In this document: in pieces, positions 6,150-17,013 of the stretch
Layout: every line of letters starts with the position of its first letter
Position numbering within the stretch: position 1 is the first letter of the stretch
Assembly: GCF_000160135.1 (NCBI RefSeq)
Contig: NZ_GG729937.1
Coordinates: 92,991 to 156,990 of the forward strand
Direction of reading: 5' to 3'
From: Oribacterium sp. oral taxon 078 str. F0262
Lineage (GTDB): Bacteria > Bacillota > Clostridia > Lachnospirales > Lachnospiraceae
Length of the DNA: 64,000 nucleotides
Notes under the pieces: generated by a model
Seen by the model: only the letters and a program-made list of their open reading frames with translations
Databases searched by the model: none
Told to the model about the DNA's origin: nothing
Made by a program: the position numbers and the translations under genes

Positions 6150-6695
6150 TCACAGTTCCATCCTCATATAAATGACTTCCTGATAGCCTGTAAGCCTGGA
6201 CTTAAATCCTCTCGGATTTCTGCCGCATTCCACGAATCCGGCCTTCTTGTATATTGAGACGGCGCTTTCATTTTCGGCGACAACATTCAGCTCGATCTGT
6301 TCATATCCTGCTTTCCCGGCGCAGTCCACACAAGCATGAAGCAGGGCCGTGCCGATCCCAAGATTCCAGTATGCCTTGTCGATGCTGATGCCAAAATCGG
6401 CACGATGCCGAATTTTATCCCTCTCCCCTATTGCCGCGATTCCGGCAAGGCCGACAGGAACACCCTCGACCTCGGCAAGTATCTCAATCTCCCTTTCGCT
6501 TTCCCTCTTTTCCTTAAGATACTTGGCTTCCTCTTCTGCTGTCATTGTATTTTCATCCGGATAGGTGAGCAGATAGTCCGTCTGCCCGTGCGTCAGAATA
6601 AAGTTTTCCAAAGCGGCCTGCCCATCCCGTTCATCCCCATTTCGCAGGATGCACTCCCTGCCATCCTTCAATTTTATTTTTTTCAGATACTCCAT
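6150..6695 (-). CDS. GNAT-family N-acetyltransferase
   Basis: A 181-residue acetyl-CoA-dependent acetyltransferase. The core motif A (about residues 100-130, FGISIDKAYWNLGIGTALLHA) carries the acetyl-CoA pyrophosphate loop. The C-terminal motif B follows (ELNVVAENESAVSIYKKAGF). The substrate is not predictable; relatives act on small amines or ribosomal proteins. GGAG lies just upstream of the ATG. The region upstream of its start contains a short scrap of an LD-carboxypeptidase gene. Confidence 0.85.
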   Translation of the reverse strand: MEYLKKIKLKDGRECILRNGDERDGQAALENFILTHGQTDYLLTYPDENTMTAEEEAKYLKEKRESEREIEILAEVEGVPVGLAGIAAIGERDKIRHRADFGISIDKAYWNLGIGTALLHACVDCAGKAGYEQIELNVVAENESAVSIYKKAGFVECGRNPRGFKSRLTGYQEVIYMRMEL

Positions 6696-6766: not shown

Positions 6767-6989
6767 TTGTAAATGAATAATTTTTATTCTAGCACAAAGG
6801 AACAGTGAACAGGATAAGATCTTCCTTACGAAAATCGTATGCCGATTCAAATCCGGCATAAGGACGGAAACCGCGTCCGAGCAATCGCAATGGATGCAAG
6901 AGTTGTCTCTGCCAATTTTTCATGATAAGCCTCGCACCGCTATAGCGTTTGTCTATGCTGAGGAATCGCTCATTTACAAATATCTTTAT

Positions 6990-7415
6990 ATGTGCTATTT
7001 TGGAATATCTATAAAAAAAGCAGAAAGATATTTTTACCCCGCAGTATTTGGGTATGAAGACGGCAAAGAAATCTCCGTTTTCTTTCCCGATCTTGATGTG
7101 GCAACCAGCGGAGAAAATGAGCAGGACGCTCTCATCTCCGCCCGTGAACTGCTCGGAATAACCATGTTCGGGCTTGAAGAGGATGGAGAGCCCATTCCGG
7201 AACCATCGCAGCTTTCGAATCTTCAAGCCACAGGTAATGAGCGCGCCGTCCTGATCGACGTCTATATGCCGTCCATCCGTATGGCAAATGTAAATAAAGC
7301 TGTAAACCGTACGATCACTCTTCCGGCATGGCTCAACGCCGCTGCTCTTGAACGCAACGTCAACTTTTCGCAGGTTTTGCAGGAGGCGCTGAAGCAGAAA
7401 TTGAATCGAACATGA
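6990..7415 (+). CDS. HicB-like antitoxin, no HicA partner seen
   Basis: The protein has the HicB layout. A partial RNase-H-like fold begins RYFYPAVFGYEDGKEISVFFPDL, followed by the EQDALISARELLGITMFGLEEDG helix. A C-terminal ribbon-helix-helix-like part contains RTITLPAWLNAAALERNVNFSQVLQEALK. HicB proteins neutralise the HicA mRNA interferase and repress their operon. No hicA can be found upstream. The start is unclear: no good ribosome-binding site precedes the ATG at 6990 or an earlier one at 6894, and family proteins usually begin about 6 residues before RYFYPAVF, where an ATA codon (7008) stands. It may be an orphan or a decayed gene. Confidence 0.7.
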   Translation: MCYFGISIKKAERYFYPAVFGYEDGKEISVFFPDLDVATSGENEQDALISARELLGITMFGLEEDGEPIPEPSQLSNLQATGNERAVLIDVYMPSIRMANVNKAVNRTITLPAWLNAAALERNVNFSQVLQEALKQKLNRT

Positions 7416-7524: not shown

Positions 7525-8034
7525 TCAAACAAGCTTGATTTGAAAGCCATTGTTTTCCACAAAAGCAAAACCTTCCGGCGTTTTCGTCATCCGCAGACGC
7601 ATATAGTCCAGCTTGTGGCGCCCAAGCATGGAGCGGCACTCTTTTGTTTTCATTTCGCAAAAGTCCGTCTTGAAGTTTTTAATGCTGCCGCTTTGGGTCA
7701 GTTCCGTAACAACCCTCACGTCTGTGCAGCGAACCAGTTCTTCTTCCAGATTCAGAACCTGCGGCAGGAAAACGATTTTCAGCTTTCCACAATACCGGGC
7801 AAGAAGCTCCAAATTCTTTTGAAGGTTTGATGTCTACGATACATCCGTGTCAAATACCAGTACCACAGTTGTCCCCGACCGAATAGACAATATCTGTGAC
7901 TTTGGAATCAGATTTTGCACAACATTGAACACTTTGATCTTACCGGGAATCAGCCTTTCCGGTGCTTCCTTCAGAGCGGCTATCAACTGCCGTTCACAGG
8001 GACCTTCCACATAGCAGATGCACCTATTGTTCAT
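7525..8034 (-). pseudogene. Small TOPRIM-like gene interrupted by an amber codon
   Basis: One continuous frame runs from ATG 8034 to TGA 7525, broken only by TAG at 7834-7836. The first 66 codons contain YVEGPCE and LVFDTDV, the Glu and Asp-x-Asp spacing of TOPRIM domains. The following 102 codons continue in the same frame (TSNLQKNLELLARYCGK onward). Full length would be about 169 residues. The ATG sits inside the terminal repeat of the adjacent IS1634 element, so the natural 5' end is probably lost. A nonsense mutation in a broken gene is the simplest reading; readthrough or a sequencing error are alternatives. The role is unknown, but the setting is a defence island. Confidence 0.65.
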
Positions 8035-9579
8035 CCTAGATTCCCGCAACACATAACTATGTAGATTGAAAGTTACTTCATCTCCGGTGCTGCCGGCAGC
8101 GGCTCCACGCCGAGATCGCGATAGATTTGTTCCTGCTTCTTCAGGACTTCGCCCTGAATTGCTGCCTTTCCGGGTTCCCGGAAGCATTCGATGACATCGC
8201 GCATCCTGTACAGGCGGAGTGCTGTGACCGGGTCCTTCACTTCGTTGCTGATCAGGACAAAGAATCCATATCGATCTCGGACAGAATCTATAGCTTCCTG
8301 CTTGTAGGAAAGAGAGATCCCCCTTTTGGGTGTCTCTTTGACCTCGAAGTACTTCCGGTAGTCTTTCTCATGCTCCGGTACACGCTTTCCGGAAAGGAGT
8401 TCCGCTTTAAGGGCATCCAGTTTCCTGTTCAGAGCCTTACTGTCATCGGAAAACTTGTCTGGATTGAAATACAGGTGGAGATACATGCGGCGCTCTTCCC
8501 GGATCGTATCGCCTTTGTAAGGACGTTCCTGTTCGTAATCCCATGCGATCGTCCTGGAGAAGACATACAGCTCCAGATCACTGTTATAGTGTTCATGGCG
8601 GTCTTTCTCTGCTCCGGTTTTACGGATGGAATTCTTCGCAAACTGCAACGCCGCAGAGGTGCTGCACAGGAACTTCCGATGCTCTTTGTACAGAGTATTG
8701 ATATTATCCGCGCTGTAGTATCCACGGTCCATGACCAGCCTGATCTTCTCATAGCCAGGGACATCCAGTTCGCGGAGCAGTTCACGAATCGTTTTGACGT
8801 CCGGAATGTTCCCGGCAAACTTACGGTAATAGAACGGCAGGCCGGAGTTTTCTCCGAAGATCAGAGCCAGATTGATCTGCGGAAGCTTTTCCCCATCCTT
8901 GTTCTTGCCGTACTTGACCTGCCTCAGGTTCTCAGAATAACCGGATATAGAAGTGCTGCCATAAGCCCAGTATTCCTTTTCAATCCGTCGCTTTCCCTGC
9001 AGGCGGAAGAACTGCATCTTTGCGTCCTCCGTAATGGACTGGAAAAGCTCCGAACTCCTTTGAGAGGGAATGGTATTCCCGTAAGGGTGTTTATGGAGCA
9101 TGGCCCACTTCCTAAAACGGAAGAGCGGATTCTGATCCTCCAGGATCAGGTAATAGGCGATCGACTGGATCTGTTTATAGGTATGCGGAAAACAGGTCTT
9201 TAAATCCGCTGTCACGCCGGTAACGATGCCGATTTGATCGAATAAATAAGTGGTACCAAAGAAGAGCCGTTCTGTCTGTGTAACAGGTACCAGTCCTCTT
9301 TTTGCAGGAGGATTCAGGTTCTTTATGCTGCGGCGTTTTCCACGGCCATCGGTTGGAACGACTTCTCCGCTGTCCGGATCCAGTCGTCCGATCAGCGTCC
9401 TTTTGGAACGGGGCTGCTTTTTAGCCCTGTCCCAGTAGGAAGTTGACTCGTAAACATATGTGATGCCACTGCGCTTATCAAGCTGTTTAATCATAGATGC
9501 CAAATTTTATCAGTATTTATGCGGCTTTGCGGCACTTATCACAGTGATATCCTAGTGTGGAATCACGGGAATGTAGGAT
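8033..9579 (-). mobile_element. IS1634-family insertion sequence, internally deleted
   Basis: A 1.55-kb element bounded by imperfect inverted repeats. ATCCTAGATTCCCG at 8033-8046 matches the reverse complement of 9566-9579 at 13 of 14 positions, and similarity continues weakly inward. One transposase gene fills it. No direct target duplication is visible at the flanks, which suggests an old insertion or later rearrangement. It sits between the TOPRIM scrap and mcrC. Confidence 0.7.
8073..9503 (-). CDS. IS1634-family transposase with internal deletion
   Basis: A 476-residue DDE transposase with the family's N-terminal SGITYVYESTSYWDRAKKQ region and the strand RLVMDRGYYSADNIN carrying a catalytic Asp. 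Relatives are usually about 550 residues. Near residue 435 the chain passes from LYRMRDVIE directly to CFREPGKAAIQGEVLKK. In relatives I recall, these two segments are separated by about 60 residues that include the E-containing KAFGNLKERL region. Both sides of the gap end in a DVIE-like motif, so slippage between short direct repeats is a likely cause. The enzyme is probably inactive because the last catalytic Glu region is missing. Confidence 0.8.
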   Translation of the reverse strand: MASMIKQLDKRSGITYVYESTSYWDRAKKQPRSKRTLIGRLDPDSGEVVPTDGRGKRRSIKNLNPPAKRGLVPVTQTERLFFGTTYLFDQIGIVTGVTADLKTCFPHTYKQIQSIAYYLILEDQNPLFRFRKWAMLHKHPYGNTIPSQRSSELFQSITEDAKMQFFRLQGKRRIEKEYWAYGSTSISGYSENLRQVKYGKNKDGEKLPQINLALIFGENSGLPFYYRKFAGNIPDVKTIRELLRELDVPGYEKIRLVMDRGYYSADNINTLYKEHRKFLCSTSAALQFAKNSIRKTGAEKDRHEHYNSDLELYVFSRTIAWDYEQERPYKGDTIREERRMYLHLYFNPDKFSDDSKALNRKLDALKAELLSGKRVPEHEKDYRKYFEVKETPKRGISLSYKQEAIDSVRDRYGFFVLISNEVKDPVTALRLYRMRDVIECFREPGKAAIQGEVLKKQEQIYRDLGVEPLPAAPEMK

Positions 9580-9663
9580 ATAGGTATGCTGTTGCTGTAG
9601 CTGTGCTCAAAAGCGACACCCCTTTCTGCTATCGTTAAATTGTTTGGTATCGTTAAAAGCTAT

Positions 9664-10704
9664 CTATGCCGCAATTCCAAAGTGCTCTGCTGCGATCTTA
9701 TACAGCTGTGCGACAACATCTGAAAAATCACAATTCAAATCCAGCGTTTTAACACTTATCTTGTTTCCACTCATCTGGTATGTATTGTTAGGCTGCACCG
9801 CTTCCTCGGTCCGGGCATAAAGCAGCATTCCCGAAACTACATGAGGCACCTCTGCAAGTTCAGAATCCTTGTTCTTAACGTAGGTAAAAATCTGATAGAG
9901 GTTATTCGAGTGAAGCGTATGCGTGTCATACTGCGCCTGTGTAGTGTGCGAATAATACTTCGCATCGATGATAAGGACCTTATCCTCGTAGGAAAGCATG
10001 ATATCGCTCTGCATAACCGGGAGCATAGCTCTCATTCCATCATCAACGGCCCAAGGTATCTGTGAAGCGCTGGCCGATATCTGAGGGAACTCCCTGCGAT
10101 AGTATTCAAGGATAAACTTCTCATACAGACGGCACATCCGCTGCTCGTCCAAGAAATCCATCAAGCGAGTCGTTCCATCCGAATTTGTCTGCAGCAGCCC
10201 TTTGACTACCAAATAGCAAATCGAGATCAACATCCGGTATGTCTGATTATTGCGGTTATACTGCACATTCCAATTGATGGTATGAACATCGAGAAGTTCT
10301 ACATCTCCGAAGAATACCAGCAGCTTTCGAAGCTCCTTTTTCCGGGCCTTGGAAATATCAGCGTGAAGAAGCAACTCCATTGTCGTTTTGATGATTCGAT
10401 TCATGTAGGAATTTACAGAAAAATCATCATAGGAACAAATCAGCTGCTTTTTAAGCATGCTTCTCGTTTTTATTGACTCGGATATCTCAATTCGACCACG
10501 CAGCGAAGACAGTGATTCTGTCTGCTCTATGTACTCTCGTCCAAGCCCGCGTTTTAACTGTACTGAGATACCCTTTGCCAGAATCGCTGCGCATAACTCC
10601 GCCACATTATTAAATTGTTCCGTCGCTATATTCTTATAGCCCTGCTCGTTTAGCACTTGAAAGGCATAAGACAGCATGTAGTAAATATTCTGAATAGGTA
10701 TCAC
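9664..10704 (-). CDS. mcrC: McrC, nuclease subunit of the McrBC restriction system
   Basis: A 346-residue cytoplasmic endonuclease subunit that works with McrB to cut DNA carrying modified cytosines. The start MIPIQNIYYMLSYAFQ is typical of the family. The PD-(D/E)xK site is visible as QSDIML (Asp) followed by VLIIDAKYY (Asp-Ala-Lys) around residue 250. The length is normal. It overlaps the mcrB stop by 4 nt (ATGA), indicating translational coupling. Downstream, 84 bp separate it from the IS1634 element, so nothing further in this operon survives. Confidence 0.93.
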   Translation of the reverse strand: MIPIQNIYYMLSYAFQVLNEQGYKNIATEQFNNVAELCAAILAKGISVQLKRGLGREYIEQTESLSSLRGRIEISESIKTRSMLKKQLICSYDDFSVNSYMNRIIKTTMELLLHADISKARKKELRKLLVFFGDVELLDVHTINWNVQYNRNNQTYRMLISICYLVVKGLLQTNSDGTTRLMDFLDEQRMCRLYEKFILEYYRREFPQISASASQIPWAVDDGMRAMLPVMQSDIMLSYEDKVLIIDAKYYSHTTQAQYDTHTLHSNNLYQIFTYVKNKDSELAEVPHVVSGMLLYARTEEAVQPNNTYQMSGNKISVKTLDLNCDFSDVVAQLYKIAAEHFGIAA

Positions 10705-12881
10705 TTAATAGCGCTCCTTAAATTGTTGATCCAGCCCTTTACCTTAACAGGCTCATCAAACCAGTATTCCTTTAACAGCGGTATCAGCTCAAACTCCACA
10801 ATACCTGAAAGAGTCTGATCGGTGGCCTTATCGAGATTACAGAAATAACTGTGTCCAATGCAGAAACCTTCGCCAAGCAACTCATCTGCCGCAATTACCG
10901 CATTCAGATTTTCAACACAGTTTATAAGGCTATCAAATTTCTCGCTGGCGCGGCTCATCCGATACTCCCTAAAACCATCAGTCTCAAAACCGGGCTTCAT
11001 CTCATAAAATGCGAATCTTCTCCGAAGAGCATAATCCAGCATTGCCAAACTGCGGTCCGCCGTATTCATCATTCCGATGATATAAACATTGCTCGGAACA
11101 GAAAACTTCTCGTCCGAATAGAGCAGCTGCAGCTCTACACCACGCTTGTCGCTTTCAATCAGCATAAACAGCTCACCGAATATCTTGCTCAGATTGCCAC
11201 GATTGATTTCATCGATGATAAAGAAGTAGTCGTTTTCGCTGTCGATCTCTGCCTCTTTGCAGAAATTGTAAAATGCACCGCGTTTAAGCTCAAAGCCTTT
11301 CTCAGAAGGACGGAAGCCCATTATGAAATCTTCGTATGAATAGCTCTGATGGAACTGCACCATCATTACGCGATTCGGGTCCTTAACACCCATCATCGAA
11401 TAGGCCAGCCTCTTTGCCGCGAAGGTCTTACCAACTCCCGGTGCACCTTGCAGGATGACATTTTTCTTGTTGCGGACGAGAGCTACAAGAGTTTCATAGT
11501 TGTCTTCATCCATATACACTTCTTCATGGAACTTCTCTGCATCGTATGCAGGGTATTCGATTTCCTGCTCTTCAACATCGTCGATGATGTCGCTTTCAAA
11601 CATGGCGTTCAGCTTCTCGACGTAGTCTGTATATGAGGTGATGTCAGTCAGCGTTTTCATAACAGCCTGACCGGGATGATCCCATTCACCCTTATGCGTC
11701 CAGTTTACTTTTCGTACATTTTTGTAATGCTGGCGGCTCGGGTCAAACTCGTATCCCGATTCTACGACACCACGGCCAATAACGAGATGCCTTCCCTTTT
11801 TTGCGAATACAACATCACCGGGCTTCATTTCATTGGCAAACTGCCATGTAGCGTGTGCAGCATTTTTATATGGCTTGGAAGGATCAATCTTTTCCTTCAT
11901 AGCCTGCTTCATCTCATCCTTGCTGCTGTAAGCGCTCAAATCACCAATCGGGTCCCATCCGATTGCCATGATCCCGTTGTTATAACACTCATCCCAGATT
12001 GTTGCTCCATCACCGGGAGAATAAATCCAATAATGAGTAGTTTCCACATCCTCATCCGCTAAAGCAGCACCCTTGGTTTCGCGCTCGGCCTGCACCTTTT
12101 TAGCACGATTCTCTTTGTTGATTTCCTCTGAATACCGCCAAGCCTCAAAACTCAGCTCCTTGAAATCCTTCAGAGCACTCTCATCGCTCTGCAAGTAAGC
12201 TCGCAGTTTTTCAACAATGTCAAAATACCCCGAGGACGGAATTTTCGGTTCAATAGTCGGAAGCGTCTGTACCAGTTCGGCTGGTATCTTCCCGGACTCA
12301 TAAATGTACCACGTGTTGCGCTGGTCCAAATTCAAGAATGCATTAGGCGCGATCCAGTACATTCCCATCGTTATTTTGCTGTTGCCGTTTCCTCTTTTAT
12401 TGATGGTCAGATCAAAATACTTCGAGAGCTTTGTGCGATTGTCCGTTGTCGGGCTGGCAGCGTATGCGAGGGCGGATTCAAACAGCGACCAGAGGTCATC
12501 GATATCGCTATCCTCGCGGTCTCCCACGAAGTAATAAAACGTAGCATTCTGGTTATTGAGCACCGGGATGCTGTCAAACGAGGTCGGCACAGGTGTGGTA
12601 ACACCAAATAAATCCGCAACAGCAGAAATAATCTTTTTCCGGTTAGCCTCTTTCATGGAGCTTTTATTGAACAGGCCAAAAACGGTGAACGGATCAATGT
12701 CCACAATCTGGTTATCCCGCTCAAGGGTAGGAAGATTGATGCCCGTAGCTTCATAAATCCTCCTGACCTTTTCCACCAGCTCCTGCCGGTTATCCTTGTA
12801 CTGTAATAACTTGCTGGCCAATTCCTTATAGAAATCCACCCAGTCAAATTGGTTTGTGATAACACCGTTCATTTCACTCAT
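10701..12881 (-). CDS. mcrB: McrB-like GTPase/AAA+ subunit with an EVE-type reader domain
   Basis: A 726-residue motor subunit. Residues 1-280 are a helical region of the kind found in Firmicutes McrB proteins. About 281-430 (HYWIYSPGDGATIWDECY to the DITSYTDYVEKL segment) resembles an EVE/PUA-like domain, which in other restriction systems reads modified bases. The AAA+ motor follows: Walker A GAPGVGKT at 479-486, Walker B FFIIDEINRGNLSKIFGE, and the McrB signature MNTADRSLAMLDYALRRRF. The weak AGGTAA site and a 17-bp dyad lie just before the ATG. The IS3 end at 12911 lies 30 bp upstream, so the original promoter may be gone. Confidence 0.93.
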   Translation of the reverse strand: MSEMNGVITNQFDWVDFYKELASKLLQYKDNRQELVEKVRRIYEATGINLPTLERDNQIVDIDPFTVFGLFNKSSMKEANRKKIISAVADLFGVTTPVPTSFDSIPVLNNQNATFYYFVGDREDSDIDDLWSLFESALAYAASPTTDNRTKLSKYFDLTINKRGNGNSKITMGMYWIAPNAFLNLDQRNTWYIYESGKIPAELVQTLPTIEPKIPSSGYFDIVEKLRAYLQSDESALKDFKELSFEAWRYSEEINKENRAKKVQAERETKGAALADEDVETTHYWIYSPGDGATIWDECYNNGIMAIGWDPIGDLSAYSSKDEMKQAMKEKIDPSKPYKNAAHATWQFANEMKPGDVVFAKKGRHLVIGRGVVESGYEFDPSRQHYKNVRKVNWTHKGEWDHPGQAVMKTLTDITSYTDYVEKLNAMFESDIIDDVEEQEIEYPAYDAEKFHEEVYMDEDNYETLVALVRNKKNVILQGAPGVGKTFAAKRLAYSMMGVKDPNRVMMVQFHQSYSYEDFIMGFRPSEKGFELKRGAFYNFCKEAEIDSENDYFFIIDEINRGNLSKIFGELFMLIESDKRGVELQLLYSDEKFSVPSNVYIIGMMNTADRSLAMLDYALRRRFAFYEMKPGFETDGFREYRMSRASEKFDSLINCVENLNAVIAADELLGEGFCIGHSYFCNLDKATDQTLSGIVEFELIPLLKEYWFDEPVKVKGWINNLRSAIK

Positions 12882-16418: not shown

Positions 16419-16637
16419 ATGTCAAAAACAAAGCCTTACAGAGAAGTGGTAAAAGCCTTGAATTGGGAACTGGATCACACGACAGGCTCGCATGAAATCT
16501 ATATTAAAAACGGAAAGATGTGTCCGCTGAAGTGTACCAAGAAAGATATTCCATCGGGAACCGTTTCCAGCATTGAGAGGATCACGGGGCTGAAATTCCA
16601 GCCCAGCCGCTTTATAGAGAGGAGGCACAATGGATAG
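16419..16637 (+). CDS. hicA: HicA mRNA interferase toxin
   Basis: A 72-residue double-stranded-RNA-binding-fold toxin that cleaves mRNA independently of the ribosome. The catalytic His lies in the GSHEIY motif (DHTTGSHEIYIKNGKM, about residue 26), as in active HicA proteins. The tail is IPSGTVSSIERITGLKF. It starts 6 nt after AAGGAGG and overlaps hicB by 8 nt, giving coupled translation of toxin and antitoxin. Confidence 0.88.
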   Translation: MSKTKPYREVVKALNWELDHTTGSHEIYIKNGKMCPLKCTKKDIPSGTVSSIERITGLKFQPSRFIERRHNG

Positions 16638-17013
16638 AGTATTGTATCCTTGCAAAATCAGAAAAGAAGACGGCGTATATTATGTAGAGTTTGTGGATTT
16701 CCCGGAATGCTTCACAGACGGAGAAAGTCCGGAGGAGGTTCTGACCAATGCCCGCGACGTGCTGGAAGGAATCATCTTCAGCTACATAAAGAATGGAAAG
16801 CCTCTGCCTTCTCCGAGCTTCTTCGAGAAAGGGTCTGCGGATGTGACCTATATTGATGCATGGGTAGGGATGGTGAGAGACCGGGTAAACAACCAGGCAG
16901 TAAGAAAAACGCTCACCATCCCGAAGTGGCTGAACGATATCGCAGAGAAAAATGCAGTGAATTTCTCCGCCGTGCTTCAGACCGGGCTGAAAGAATACCT
17001 AAATATCAGCTAG
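16630..17013 (+). CDS. hicB: HicB antitoxin
   Basis: A 127-residue antitoxin. The N-terminal partial RNase-H fold (YPCKIRKEDGVYYVEFVDFPECFTDG) blocks HicA. The C-terminal KTLTIPKWLNDIAEKNAVNFSAVLQTGLKEYL is a ribbon-helix-helix-type DNA-binding region. Together with hicA it forms a type II module. It likely represses the promoter at 16369 through the inverted repeat there. Its overall layout parallels the solitary HicB-like protein at 6990-7415. Confidence 0.9.
   Translation: MDRVLYPCKIRKEDGVYYVEFVDFPECFTDGESPEEVLTNARDVLEGIIFSYIKNGKPLPSPSFFEKGSADVTYIDAWVGMVRDRVNNQAVRKTLTIPKWLNDIAEKNAVNFSAVLQTGLKEYLNIS

What the first reader, a model, noticed from the sequence alone, without database searches (positions are those of the whole stretch)
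7525..8034. Small TOPRIM-like protein split by a single in-frame amber codon in a defence island
Seen: one frame of 169 codons with EGPCE and FDTD signatures, interrupted only by TAG at 7834-7836 with clear coding continuity on both sides. The 5' end coincides with an IS1634 end. Known: TOPRIM nucleases occur in several anti-phage systems. Inference: an undescribed small TOPRIM gene, recently inactivated.
Basis: partly seen in the sequence, partly recalled or inferred. Interest (0 to 1): 0.55.

Follow-up and report, generated by a model that had tools for sequence, protein, structure and literature searches.

The report
Dead half of an ATPase–TOPRIM pair
This is the broken leftover of a small nuclease-like gene that normally works together with a neighbouring ATPase gene, probably as a defence against bacterial viruses; the gene here is dead, but intact copies of the pair in gut and mouth bacteria look like a little-known cousin of known defence systems.

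Summary
It is a real TOPRIM-type gene; relatives 82-83% identical are intact in two other genomes of the genus. In 50 of 59 related loci a full small TOPRIM gene directly follows a full ABC (Rad50/SMC-like) ATPase gene of about 370 codons. Here only the last ATPase codons remain before the insertion sequence; the rest was found neither in the window nor elsewhere in the genome. So this is a pseudogene hit twice (partner lost, amber stop), not a recoded or split gene: no pyrrolysine synthetase reached its cut-off and TAG ends other long ORFs. By motifs, predicted fold and operon layout the intact pair most resembles split OLD-type systems (AbiL, PARIS), in which an ATPase is paired with a toxic TOPRIM nuclease against phages, but the AbiLii and RloB models barely recognise the TOPRIM half. 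The remnant is ordinary; the two-gene family, for which I found no name, is of moderate interest. Function is inferred, not shown.

The parts
7525..8034 (-). Remnant of the small TOPRIM gene (169 codons, ATG 8034, TGA 7527-7525)
   Evidence: 82-83% identical to intact genes in two genomes of the same genus; single copy in the genome
7834..7836 (-). In-frame TAG (codon 67), two codons after the FDTD motif; full-length relatives have a sense codon here
8024..8035 (-). Last three codons and stop (D-E-Q-stop) of the lost ATPase partner gene, overlapping the TOPRIM start by 11 bases as in the closest intact relatives; base 8035 is shared with the insertion sequence end
   Evidence: same overlap in L002/L031, L003/L032, L029, L030
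8035..9577 (-). Insertion sequence with 12-base terminal inverted repeats (11 of 12 identical), no target duplication seen; transposase ORF 8073-9503
9664..10704 (-). McrC-like gene (context, not part of the unit); lies beyond the insertion sequence, where the ATPase would be expected
   Evidence: Pfam McrBC 3e-37; no ATPase relic in the window by tblastn
10701..12881 (-). McrB-like AAA gene (context)
   Evidence: Pfam AAA_5 2.5e-23
6894..7415 (+). HicB-like antitoxin gene, convergent with the remnant (context)
   Evidence: Pfam HicB_lk_antitox 1.7e-5, 25.4 bits, below its cut-off of 27

Best explanation
The feature is the decayed second gene of a two-gene system: an ABC-type ATPase (about 370 residues) followed by a small TOPRIM protein (about 169 residues), very likely a nuclease. 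In this genome an insertion sequence sits at the last four codons of the ATPase gene and the rest of that gene has been lost; the orphaned TOPRIM gene also carries an amber stop just after its DxD motif and is dead (the order of the two events is not known). In intact copies the most likely working is that of AbiL and PARIS: the ATPase forms a multimer that senses infection and holds the TOPRIM protein silent; on a phage trigger the TOPRIM protein is freed or switched on and cuts nucleic acid (tRNA or DNA) with two metals, stopping growth of the cell and so of the phage. Shown here: the gene pair and its conservation, the double lesion, the catalytic-type residues, the predicted folds. Inferred: nuclease activity, its target, restraint by the ATPase, anti-phage role. 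Confidence is about 0.9 for the remnant-of-a-pair part and about 0.5 for the mechanism.
For: Pair: by one criterion for all 59 loci (57 genome-contig loci, 1 phage, 1 viral contig), 52 have a full TOPRIM gene; 50 of these have a full ATPase gene next to it, and in the other 2 the upstream side is cut by the contig end (a cruder length count also gave 50). Spacing: of 62 pairs preselected as neighbours on one strand, 36 overlap and 26 lie within 50 bases. Distances of the two proteins correlate over 43 loci (r 0.90, 0 of 2000 permutations as high). Residues: E10, G11, D62, D64, E97, E99, K122 invariant in 46 chosen full-length rows and E14 in at least 90%, the same kinds and order as the OLD class 2 set E400, E404, D455, D457, T506, E508, K562 in PMC6755086 (passages). 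Fold: TOPRIM model pLDDT 95; the four best VIA-align rows are OLD and GajA TOPRIM domains, Z 7.1 to 6.2 over 145-147 residues. ATPase: P-loop and other ABC-type residues invariant, model pLDDT 88, Rad50/SMC and PtuA folds, Z 21 to 17; best PADLOC family AbiLi in the 5 members scanned. Lesions; no ATPase elsewhere in the genome (best E 0.012). Hint of restraint: the three TOPRIM genes seen to lack an ATPase (window, L047, L083) are all broken, while 0 of 50 full ones with a readable upstream side lack it (Fisher p 0.0018, 0.013 without the window).
Against: No function was tested. Foldseek found no PDB match for the TOPRIM model below E 0.001; VIA-align Z of 7.1 is below 8, and unrelated CpaE receiver-like domains score 6.2 and 6.1 (over 99-103 residues). 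The ATPases score about 78-84 bits against PADLOC AbiLi, full-length ATPases beside RloB-type AbiLii genes 261-341. Broken TOPRIM genes behind an ATPase also occur (L060, L063, L070, L072, L084), and general decay would also make orphans broken. In PMC3985639 (passages) L. lactis AbiLii was not toxic in E. coli, and F. nucleatum AbiLi did not neutralise its toxic AbiLii, against a simple guard model. No plasmid record (0 of 72,556) and one phage record (of 50,697) hold a copy. Neighbours of the relatives are not clearly defence genes.
Confidence: 0.8

Rival explanations
1. The TAG is read through (pyrrolysine or suppressor tRNA), so the gene is functional.
For: One stop only, coding pattern kept on both sides.
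Against: Pyrrolysyl-tRNA synthetase model: two sub-cut-off matches, none over cut-off in the genome, while 1 of 14 control genomes was over it. TAG ends 8 of 40 long window ORFs. Full-length relatives have a sense codon there. The ATPase partner is missing. A tryptophan present in 62 of 68 rows (148) is also changed. A suppressor tRNA was looked for only in the window.
Confidence: 0.02
2. The TAG is a sequencing or assembly error in an otherwise living gene.
For: Single lesion inside the frame; reads could not be inspected.
Against: The partner gene is gone regardless. Extra amino-acid changes sit on the window branch: 15 silent to 11 changing codons (the stop counted) against 21 to 0 on the sister branch with outgroup L033; the contrast is weaker with outgroup L035 (21:5 against 16:2).
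Confidence: 0.06
3. The ATPase-TOPRIM pair is a toxin-antitoxin module that maintains mobile elements rather than an anti-phage system; the ATPase simply neutralises the TOPRIM toxin.
For: Found between unrelated genes and beside integrase-like genes (by inspection); AAA ATPases paired with TOPRIM_OLD toxins are presented as neutralised pairs in E. coli in PMC10440598 (section 11 part 1); orphan TOPRIM genes are broken.
Against: Same-kind pairs (AbiL, PARIS) are described as phage defences (PMC10440598 passages, PMC11455837); one copy sits between portal and terminase genes of a phage, where it would fit exclusion of rivals. The two readings overlap.
Confidence: 0.25
4. The small TOPRIM protein is a structural or regulatory subunit without nuclease activity.
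For: Some TOPRIM domains are non-catalytic (PMC6755086 passages).
Against: E, DxD, ExE and K positions are invariant over 46 divergent full-length rows; among 52 full genes the seven positions depart only as D for E at 14 (3 genes) or 99 (1 gene).
Confidence: 0.1

Closest known systems
AbiL (AbiLi ATPase + AbiLii, RloB/TOPRIM)
   Same: Two genes, ABC ATPase first, small TOPRIM protein second; the 5 ATPases scanned match PADLOC AbiLi best; EG..E and FD.D motifs aligned co-linearly in a profile comparison
   Different: AbiLi score about a quarter to a third of that of full-length ATPases beside RloB-type genes; PADLOC AbiLii recognises 9 of 46 TOPRIM members, best 6e-4, and not the window protein or its intact O. 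parvum relative; hhalign probability only 7.9%, E 0.0044; NLEDE where RloB-type proteins have FELW (my reading)
PARIS (AriA + AriB), class 4 OLD
   Same: Separate ABC ATPase and TOPRIM genes; PADLOC AriA matches the ATPases weakly
   Different: No family named AriB or AriAB among the 12 PADLOC families that any of 46 TOPRIM members match at E up to 1 (that PADLOC holds an AriB model is assumed); AriB is larger (recalled)
OLD class 2 / Gabija GajA
   Same: Kinds and order of catalytic residues; TOPRIM fold
   Different: Domains on separate genes, no helicase partner seen; C-terminal part shorter (169 residues against 198 in chain 6nk8_A)
NetFlax AAA-neutralised TOPRIM_OLD toxins (PMC10440598)
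   Same: AAA ATPase gene paired with a TOPRIM_OLD toxin, tested in E. coli
   Different: Whether their clusters D44 or D60 contain this family could not be tested (data set not held)

Membership tests
TOPRIM domain | Invariant Glu, a conserved Gly, and DxD | tested here: met
   E10, G31, D62-x-D64 invariant in 46 full-length rows; that G31 is the TOPRIM glycine is inference
TOPRIM domain | TOPRIM fold | tested here: inconclusive
   AlphaFold model pLDDT 95.2; OLD and GajA TOPRIM rows lead the VIA-align list (Z 7.1-6.2), but Z is under 8 and unrelated rows are within 1; Foldseek gave none below E 0.001
OLD family (class 2 catalytic set) | Second Glu four residues on, T/ExE in the helical part, catalytic Lys | tested here: met
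   E14 (>=90%, otherwise D), E97-x-E99, K122 against residues listed in PMC6755086; equivalence by order, not by superposed coordinates
OLD family | ABC ATPase fused to TOPRIM in one protein | tested here: not met
   Separate genes in the 50 of 59 loci where both are full and visible
AbiL | AbiLi-type ATPase gene upstream | tested here: inconclusive
   AbiLi is the best PADLOC family of the 5 ATPases scanned, but at only 78-84 bits; in the window itself only the last codons remain
AbiL | AbiLii / RloB protein | tested here: inconclusive
   AbiLii model 9 of 46, best 6e-4; RloB 1 of 46, 0.023; window protein none; profile comparison 7.9%
AbiL | Abortive infection phenotype | not testable with these tools
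   needs a phage assay
PARIS | AriB-type TOPRIM protein | tested here: inconclusive
   No AriB-named family among the 12 PADLOC families matched by any of 46 members at E up to 1; presence of an AriB model in the library was not checked
Pyrrolysine-using organism | PylS in the genome | tested here: not met
   No match over cut-off in a 97.4% complete genome

The most novel reading that the evidence does not exclude
The intact pairs are a third, undescribed lineage of split OLD-type anti-phage systems beside AbiL and PARIS, built on a very small TOPRIM effector, spread sparsely through Lachnospiraceae, other Firmicutes and a few other bacteria of gut and mouth, exchanged between species on mobile elements and carried as cargo by a gut phage; the ATPase is the guard, so that loss of the ATPase forces loss of the TOPRIM gene, as seen in this window.
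Probability: 0.35. Interest if true: 0.5.

Novelty: new variant of a known kind. Interest (0 to 1): 0.3.

Why it matters
The remnant itself matters little. The family behind it is poorly covered: its TOPRIM half gets no confident Pfam hit (11 of 46 members touch an OLD-like TOPRIM model, best E 0.001), the window protein has no NCBIfam or PADLOC hit, and PADLOC's AbiLii sees 9 of 46 members weakly. Defence surveys may therefore score the ATPase as a lone AbiLi-like gene or miss the pair. A 169-residue TOPRIM effector with a separate ATPase would be a convenient small system in which to ask what the TOPRIM cuts and how the ATPase controls it.

Tried and rejected
Pfam, NCBIfam and PADLOC with the window protein gave nothing; PHROGs gave one significant family of unknown function (phrog_10204, 2.5e-13). 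Sequence searches of PDB gave nothing credible with one sequence or the profile. Foldseek against BFVD gave no match below 0.001. Plasmids: none with two different members. Phages: three different members all found the same one record. The first viral-contig scan with a single sequence found none; with the alignment one, whose neighbours do not look clearly viral to me (inspection only). I tried to find the empty site or the missing ATPase by searching the flanks in 17 genomes of the genus (own included): the left flank has only short weak matches elsewhere, the right flank (McrBC) has a 71% relative in one genome and short pieces in another, so no ancestral junction could be read. Neighbours: the 90 nearest of 135 selected (from 331 found) ORFs near the relatives were scanned; no family occurs in more than 5 of 90, so no third constant partner; a few neighbours match defence models (a type II methyltransferase, a CD-NTase-type cyclase, a mads_6 and others, one member each); no control set was scanned. 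The VIA-align rows shown for the TOPRIM model contain no AriB or RloB entry and those shown for the ATPase model no GajA or AriA entry; this excludes nothing. Rejected: split gene with two natural halves; recoded TAG. Literature: searches (open PMC papers only) gave no paper that I recognised as describing this family; that is not proof of absence. Papers: PMC11455837 whole text; PMC10440598 passages and section 11 part 1; PMC3985639, PMC6755086, PMC10568477, PMC12796447, PMC12409363 passages only; Deng et al. 1999 (AbiL) seen only as a reference.

Weak points in counts: in a first count by ORF length L070 passed as intact, and L047 and L083 were called broken only on inspection; I therefore recounted all 59 loci by one criterion (at least 85% of the model, E10, D62 and D64 present), which changed the Fisher values (0.0007 and 0.007) to 0.0018 and 0.013. 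L031 and L032 were taken as equal to the inspected L002 and L003. The 59 loci include near-identical ones (L029/L030; L044/L045) and leave out the nine loci with own locus ids L020-L028: L020 repeats L002; L021-L026 show the pair; L027 has both genes broken; L028 a TOPRIM gene truncated about 7 codons after the window's stop position beside an ATPase gene of 376 codons. All loci were found through the TOPRIM half, so lone ATPases are under-counted. In the 68-row alignment that includes broken copies the key residues are less than invariant (E97 63, E99 62, K122 62 of 68). In one search the phage locus was scored as lacking the ATPase because of an over-extended start; correct this.

Full report
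WHAT IS IN THE SEQUENCE. It occurs once in the 2.68 Mb, 97.4% complete genome. An insertion sequence occupies 8035-9577: its left end is the base at which three other places in the genome with this end also start, and its two ends share 11 of 12 terminal bases; no target duplication is visible. Beyond it lie a McrC-like and a McrB-like gene.

INTACT RELATIVES AND THE MISSING PARTNER. Two of 60 other genomes searched near this one carry an intact gene, 82-83% identical; contig length and position identify them as Oribacterium parvum ACB1 and O. sinus DSM 17245, and they are listed as the same genus, so the window is from that genus (or its GTDB equivalent). In both, a 367-373-residue ATPase gene ends 11 bases inside the TOPRIM gene. 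The wider family is sparse: 10 of 392 genomes of the order, own included; 2 of 398 of the phylum, own included; 57 loci from genome contigs; 1 phage record of 50,697, 0 plasmid records of 72,556, 1 viral contig. Over 59 loci, 52 have a full TOPRIM gene (at least 85% of the model, E10, D62, D64 present); 50 of these stand next to a full ATPase gene on the same strand and in the other 2 the upstream side is cut by the contig end. Of 62 pairs preselected as neighbours, 36 overlap and 26 lie within 50 bases. The two proteins diverged together (r 0.90 over 43 loci, 0 of 2000 permutations as high). No third gene family recurs in more than 5 of 90 neighbours scanned.

THE LESIONS HERE. On the minus strand the last bases before the insertion sequence read D-E-Q-stop in the ATPase frame, overlapping the TOPRIM start exactly as in the closest relatives. 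Nothing else of the ATPase was found in the window (tblastn gives only a P-loop match to the McrB-like gene at E 0.16 and a 28-residue match at 0.28) or elsewhere in the genome (best E 0.012). So the partner was removed up to the insertion sequence, which fits an insertion followed by a deletion from its far end; this order, and that of the TAG, is not shown. Selection had been strong before (dN/dS about 0.06 against L029, with dS near saturation). The window branch has 15 silent and 11 changing codons, the stop counted, against 21 and 0 on the sister branch with outgroup L033; with outgroup L035 it is 21 and 5 against 16 and 2. A tryptophan present in 62 of 68 rows (148) is changed as well. 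Read-through is unlikely: no PylS over the cut-off, and TAG ends 8 of 40 long ORFs in the window.

WHAT THE INTACT PAIR IS. The TOPRIM protein keeps E10, G11, D62, D64, E97, E99 and K122 in all 46 chosen full-length rows, and E14 in at least 90%; in 52 full genes the only departures at the seven acidic or lysine positions are D for E at 14 in three and at 99 in one. PMC6755086 (passages) lists E400, E404, D455, D457, T506, E508 and K562 as the two-metal and lysine set of class 2 OLD nucleases; the kinds and order agree, the one-to-one match is inference. The AlphaFold model (pLDDT 95.2) has OLD and GajA TOPRIM domains as its four best VIA-align rows (Z 7.1 to 6.2 over 145-147 residues), but unrelated CpaE domains follow at 6.2 and 6.1 over about 100 residues, and Foldseek alone gives nothing below 0.001; the fold match supports but does not prove. 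The ATPase model (pLDDT 88.3) is a Rad50/SMC-type head, with PtuA of Septu and retron complexes among the matches (Z 21.0 to 17.2 in the rows shown); residues that I read as Walker A, signature, Walker B and H-loop are invariant in 46 rows.

RELATION TO KNOWN SYSTEMS. ABC ATPase plus TOPRIM is a known kind: OLD, Gabija, retrons, AbiL, MADS and PARIS (PMC12409363 passage). As two genes it is AbiL or PARIS. Our ATPases match PADLOC AbiLi at 78-84 bits (5 scanned), full-length ATPases beside RloB-type AbiLii genes at 261-341 bits (5 scanned; a sixth, fragmentary, 128). The TOPRIM half matches AbiLii in 9 of 46 members (best 6e-4), the Pfam model OLD-like_TOPRIM_1 in 11 of 46 (best 0.001) and RloB in 1 of 46 (0.023); no AriB-named family is among the 12 PADLOC families matched. 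The profile comparison with RloB-type AbiLii is 7.9% probable (E 0.0044) though co-linear at the motifs. So it looks like an AbiL or PARIS pair by layout, but I do not file the TOPRIM half as AbiLii, RloB or AriB.

MECHANISM. In PARIS the ATPase ring sequesters the TOPRIM toxin and releases it on a phage signal, and the toxin cuts tRNA (PMC11455837 whole text). AAA ATPases paired with TOPRIM_OLD toxins of C. algidicarnis and S. agalactiae are presented as neutralised pairs, tested in E. coli, in PMC10440598 (section 11 part 1 and legend of its Fig. 6). Against a simple guard: in PMC3985639 (passages) L. lactis AbiLii was not toxic in E. coli, and AbiLi of F. nucleatum did not neutralise its toxic AbiLii. 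Guard and effector is therefore the likeliest working, not a proven one. One small observation here fits it: the three TOPRIM genes seen without an ATPase are broken (window; L047 frameshifted; L083 truncated), while 0 of 50 full ones with a readable upstream side lack it; broken TOPRIM genes behind an ATPase do occur (L060, L063, L070, L072, L084, some near contig ends) (Fisher p 0.0018, 0.013 without the window). Numbers are small and plain decay could give the same.

MOBILITY. The pair sits between unrelated genes in the two Oribacterium genomes, beside two integrase-like genes in Roseburia inulinivorans and Pseudoflavonifractor sp. MSJ-30, whose TOPRIM proteins are identical (gene calls by inspection), and between portal and terminase genes, on the opposite strand, in the phage record PV036423.1. 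This suits a horizontally moving accessory function.

VERDICT. Observation confirmed; interpretation partly supported. The window holds a dead, ordinary remnant; the family it points to is a modestly interesting variant of split ATPase-TOPRIM systems for which I found no name.

Noticed in passing
L029 and L030 3597-4748; L034 2-964: A second, paralogous ATPase gene without a TOPRIM partner of its own lies upstream of the ATPase-TOPRIM pair (PADLOC AbiLi 2e-30 for the L029 copy).
   Followed up: partly
window 9584-9664; also G000:C10:67505-67585 and G005:C1:381954-382034: An 81-base stretch between the insertion sequence and McrC recurs at 86-88% elsewhere in this genome and in another of the genus; nature unknown.
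   Followed up: partly
window 16419-17013 and 6894-7415: 16419-17013 looks like a HicA-HicB pair (by inspection); 6894-7415 is a second HicB-like gene with no evident HicA partner.
   Followed up: no
L072 around 6321-6398: The TOPRIM gene of a MAG labelled spirochaete is interrupted by an insertion of roughly 75 bases or more while its ATPase is intact.
   Followed up: no
L029 and L030, whole: Very similar gene order with two integrase-like genes in Roseburia inulinivorans DSM 16841 and Pseudoflavonifractor sp. MSJ-30: a recent transfer, or contamination of one assembly.
   Followed up: no
L004 6899-8498 (phage PV036423.1): The pair is phage cargo between portal and large terminase genes on the opposite strand; both genes are annotated hypothetical.
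   Followed up: partly
window 9664-12881: McrBC-like pair; residues 285-416 of the McrB-like protein resemble PADLOC PDC-S02 (3.4e-19); a 71% DNA relative is in one other genome of the genus.
   Followed up: no
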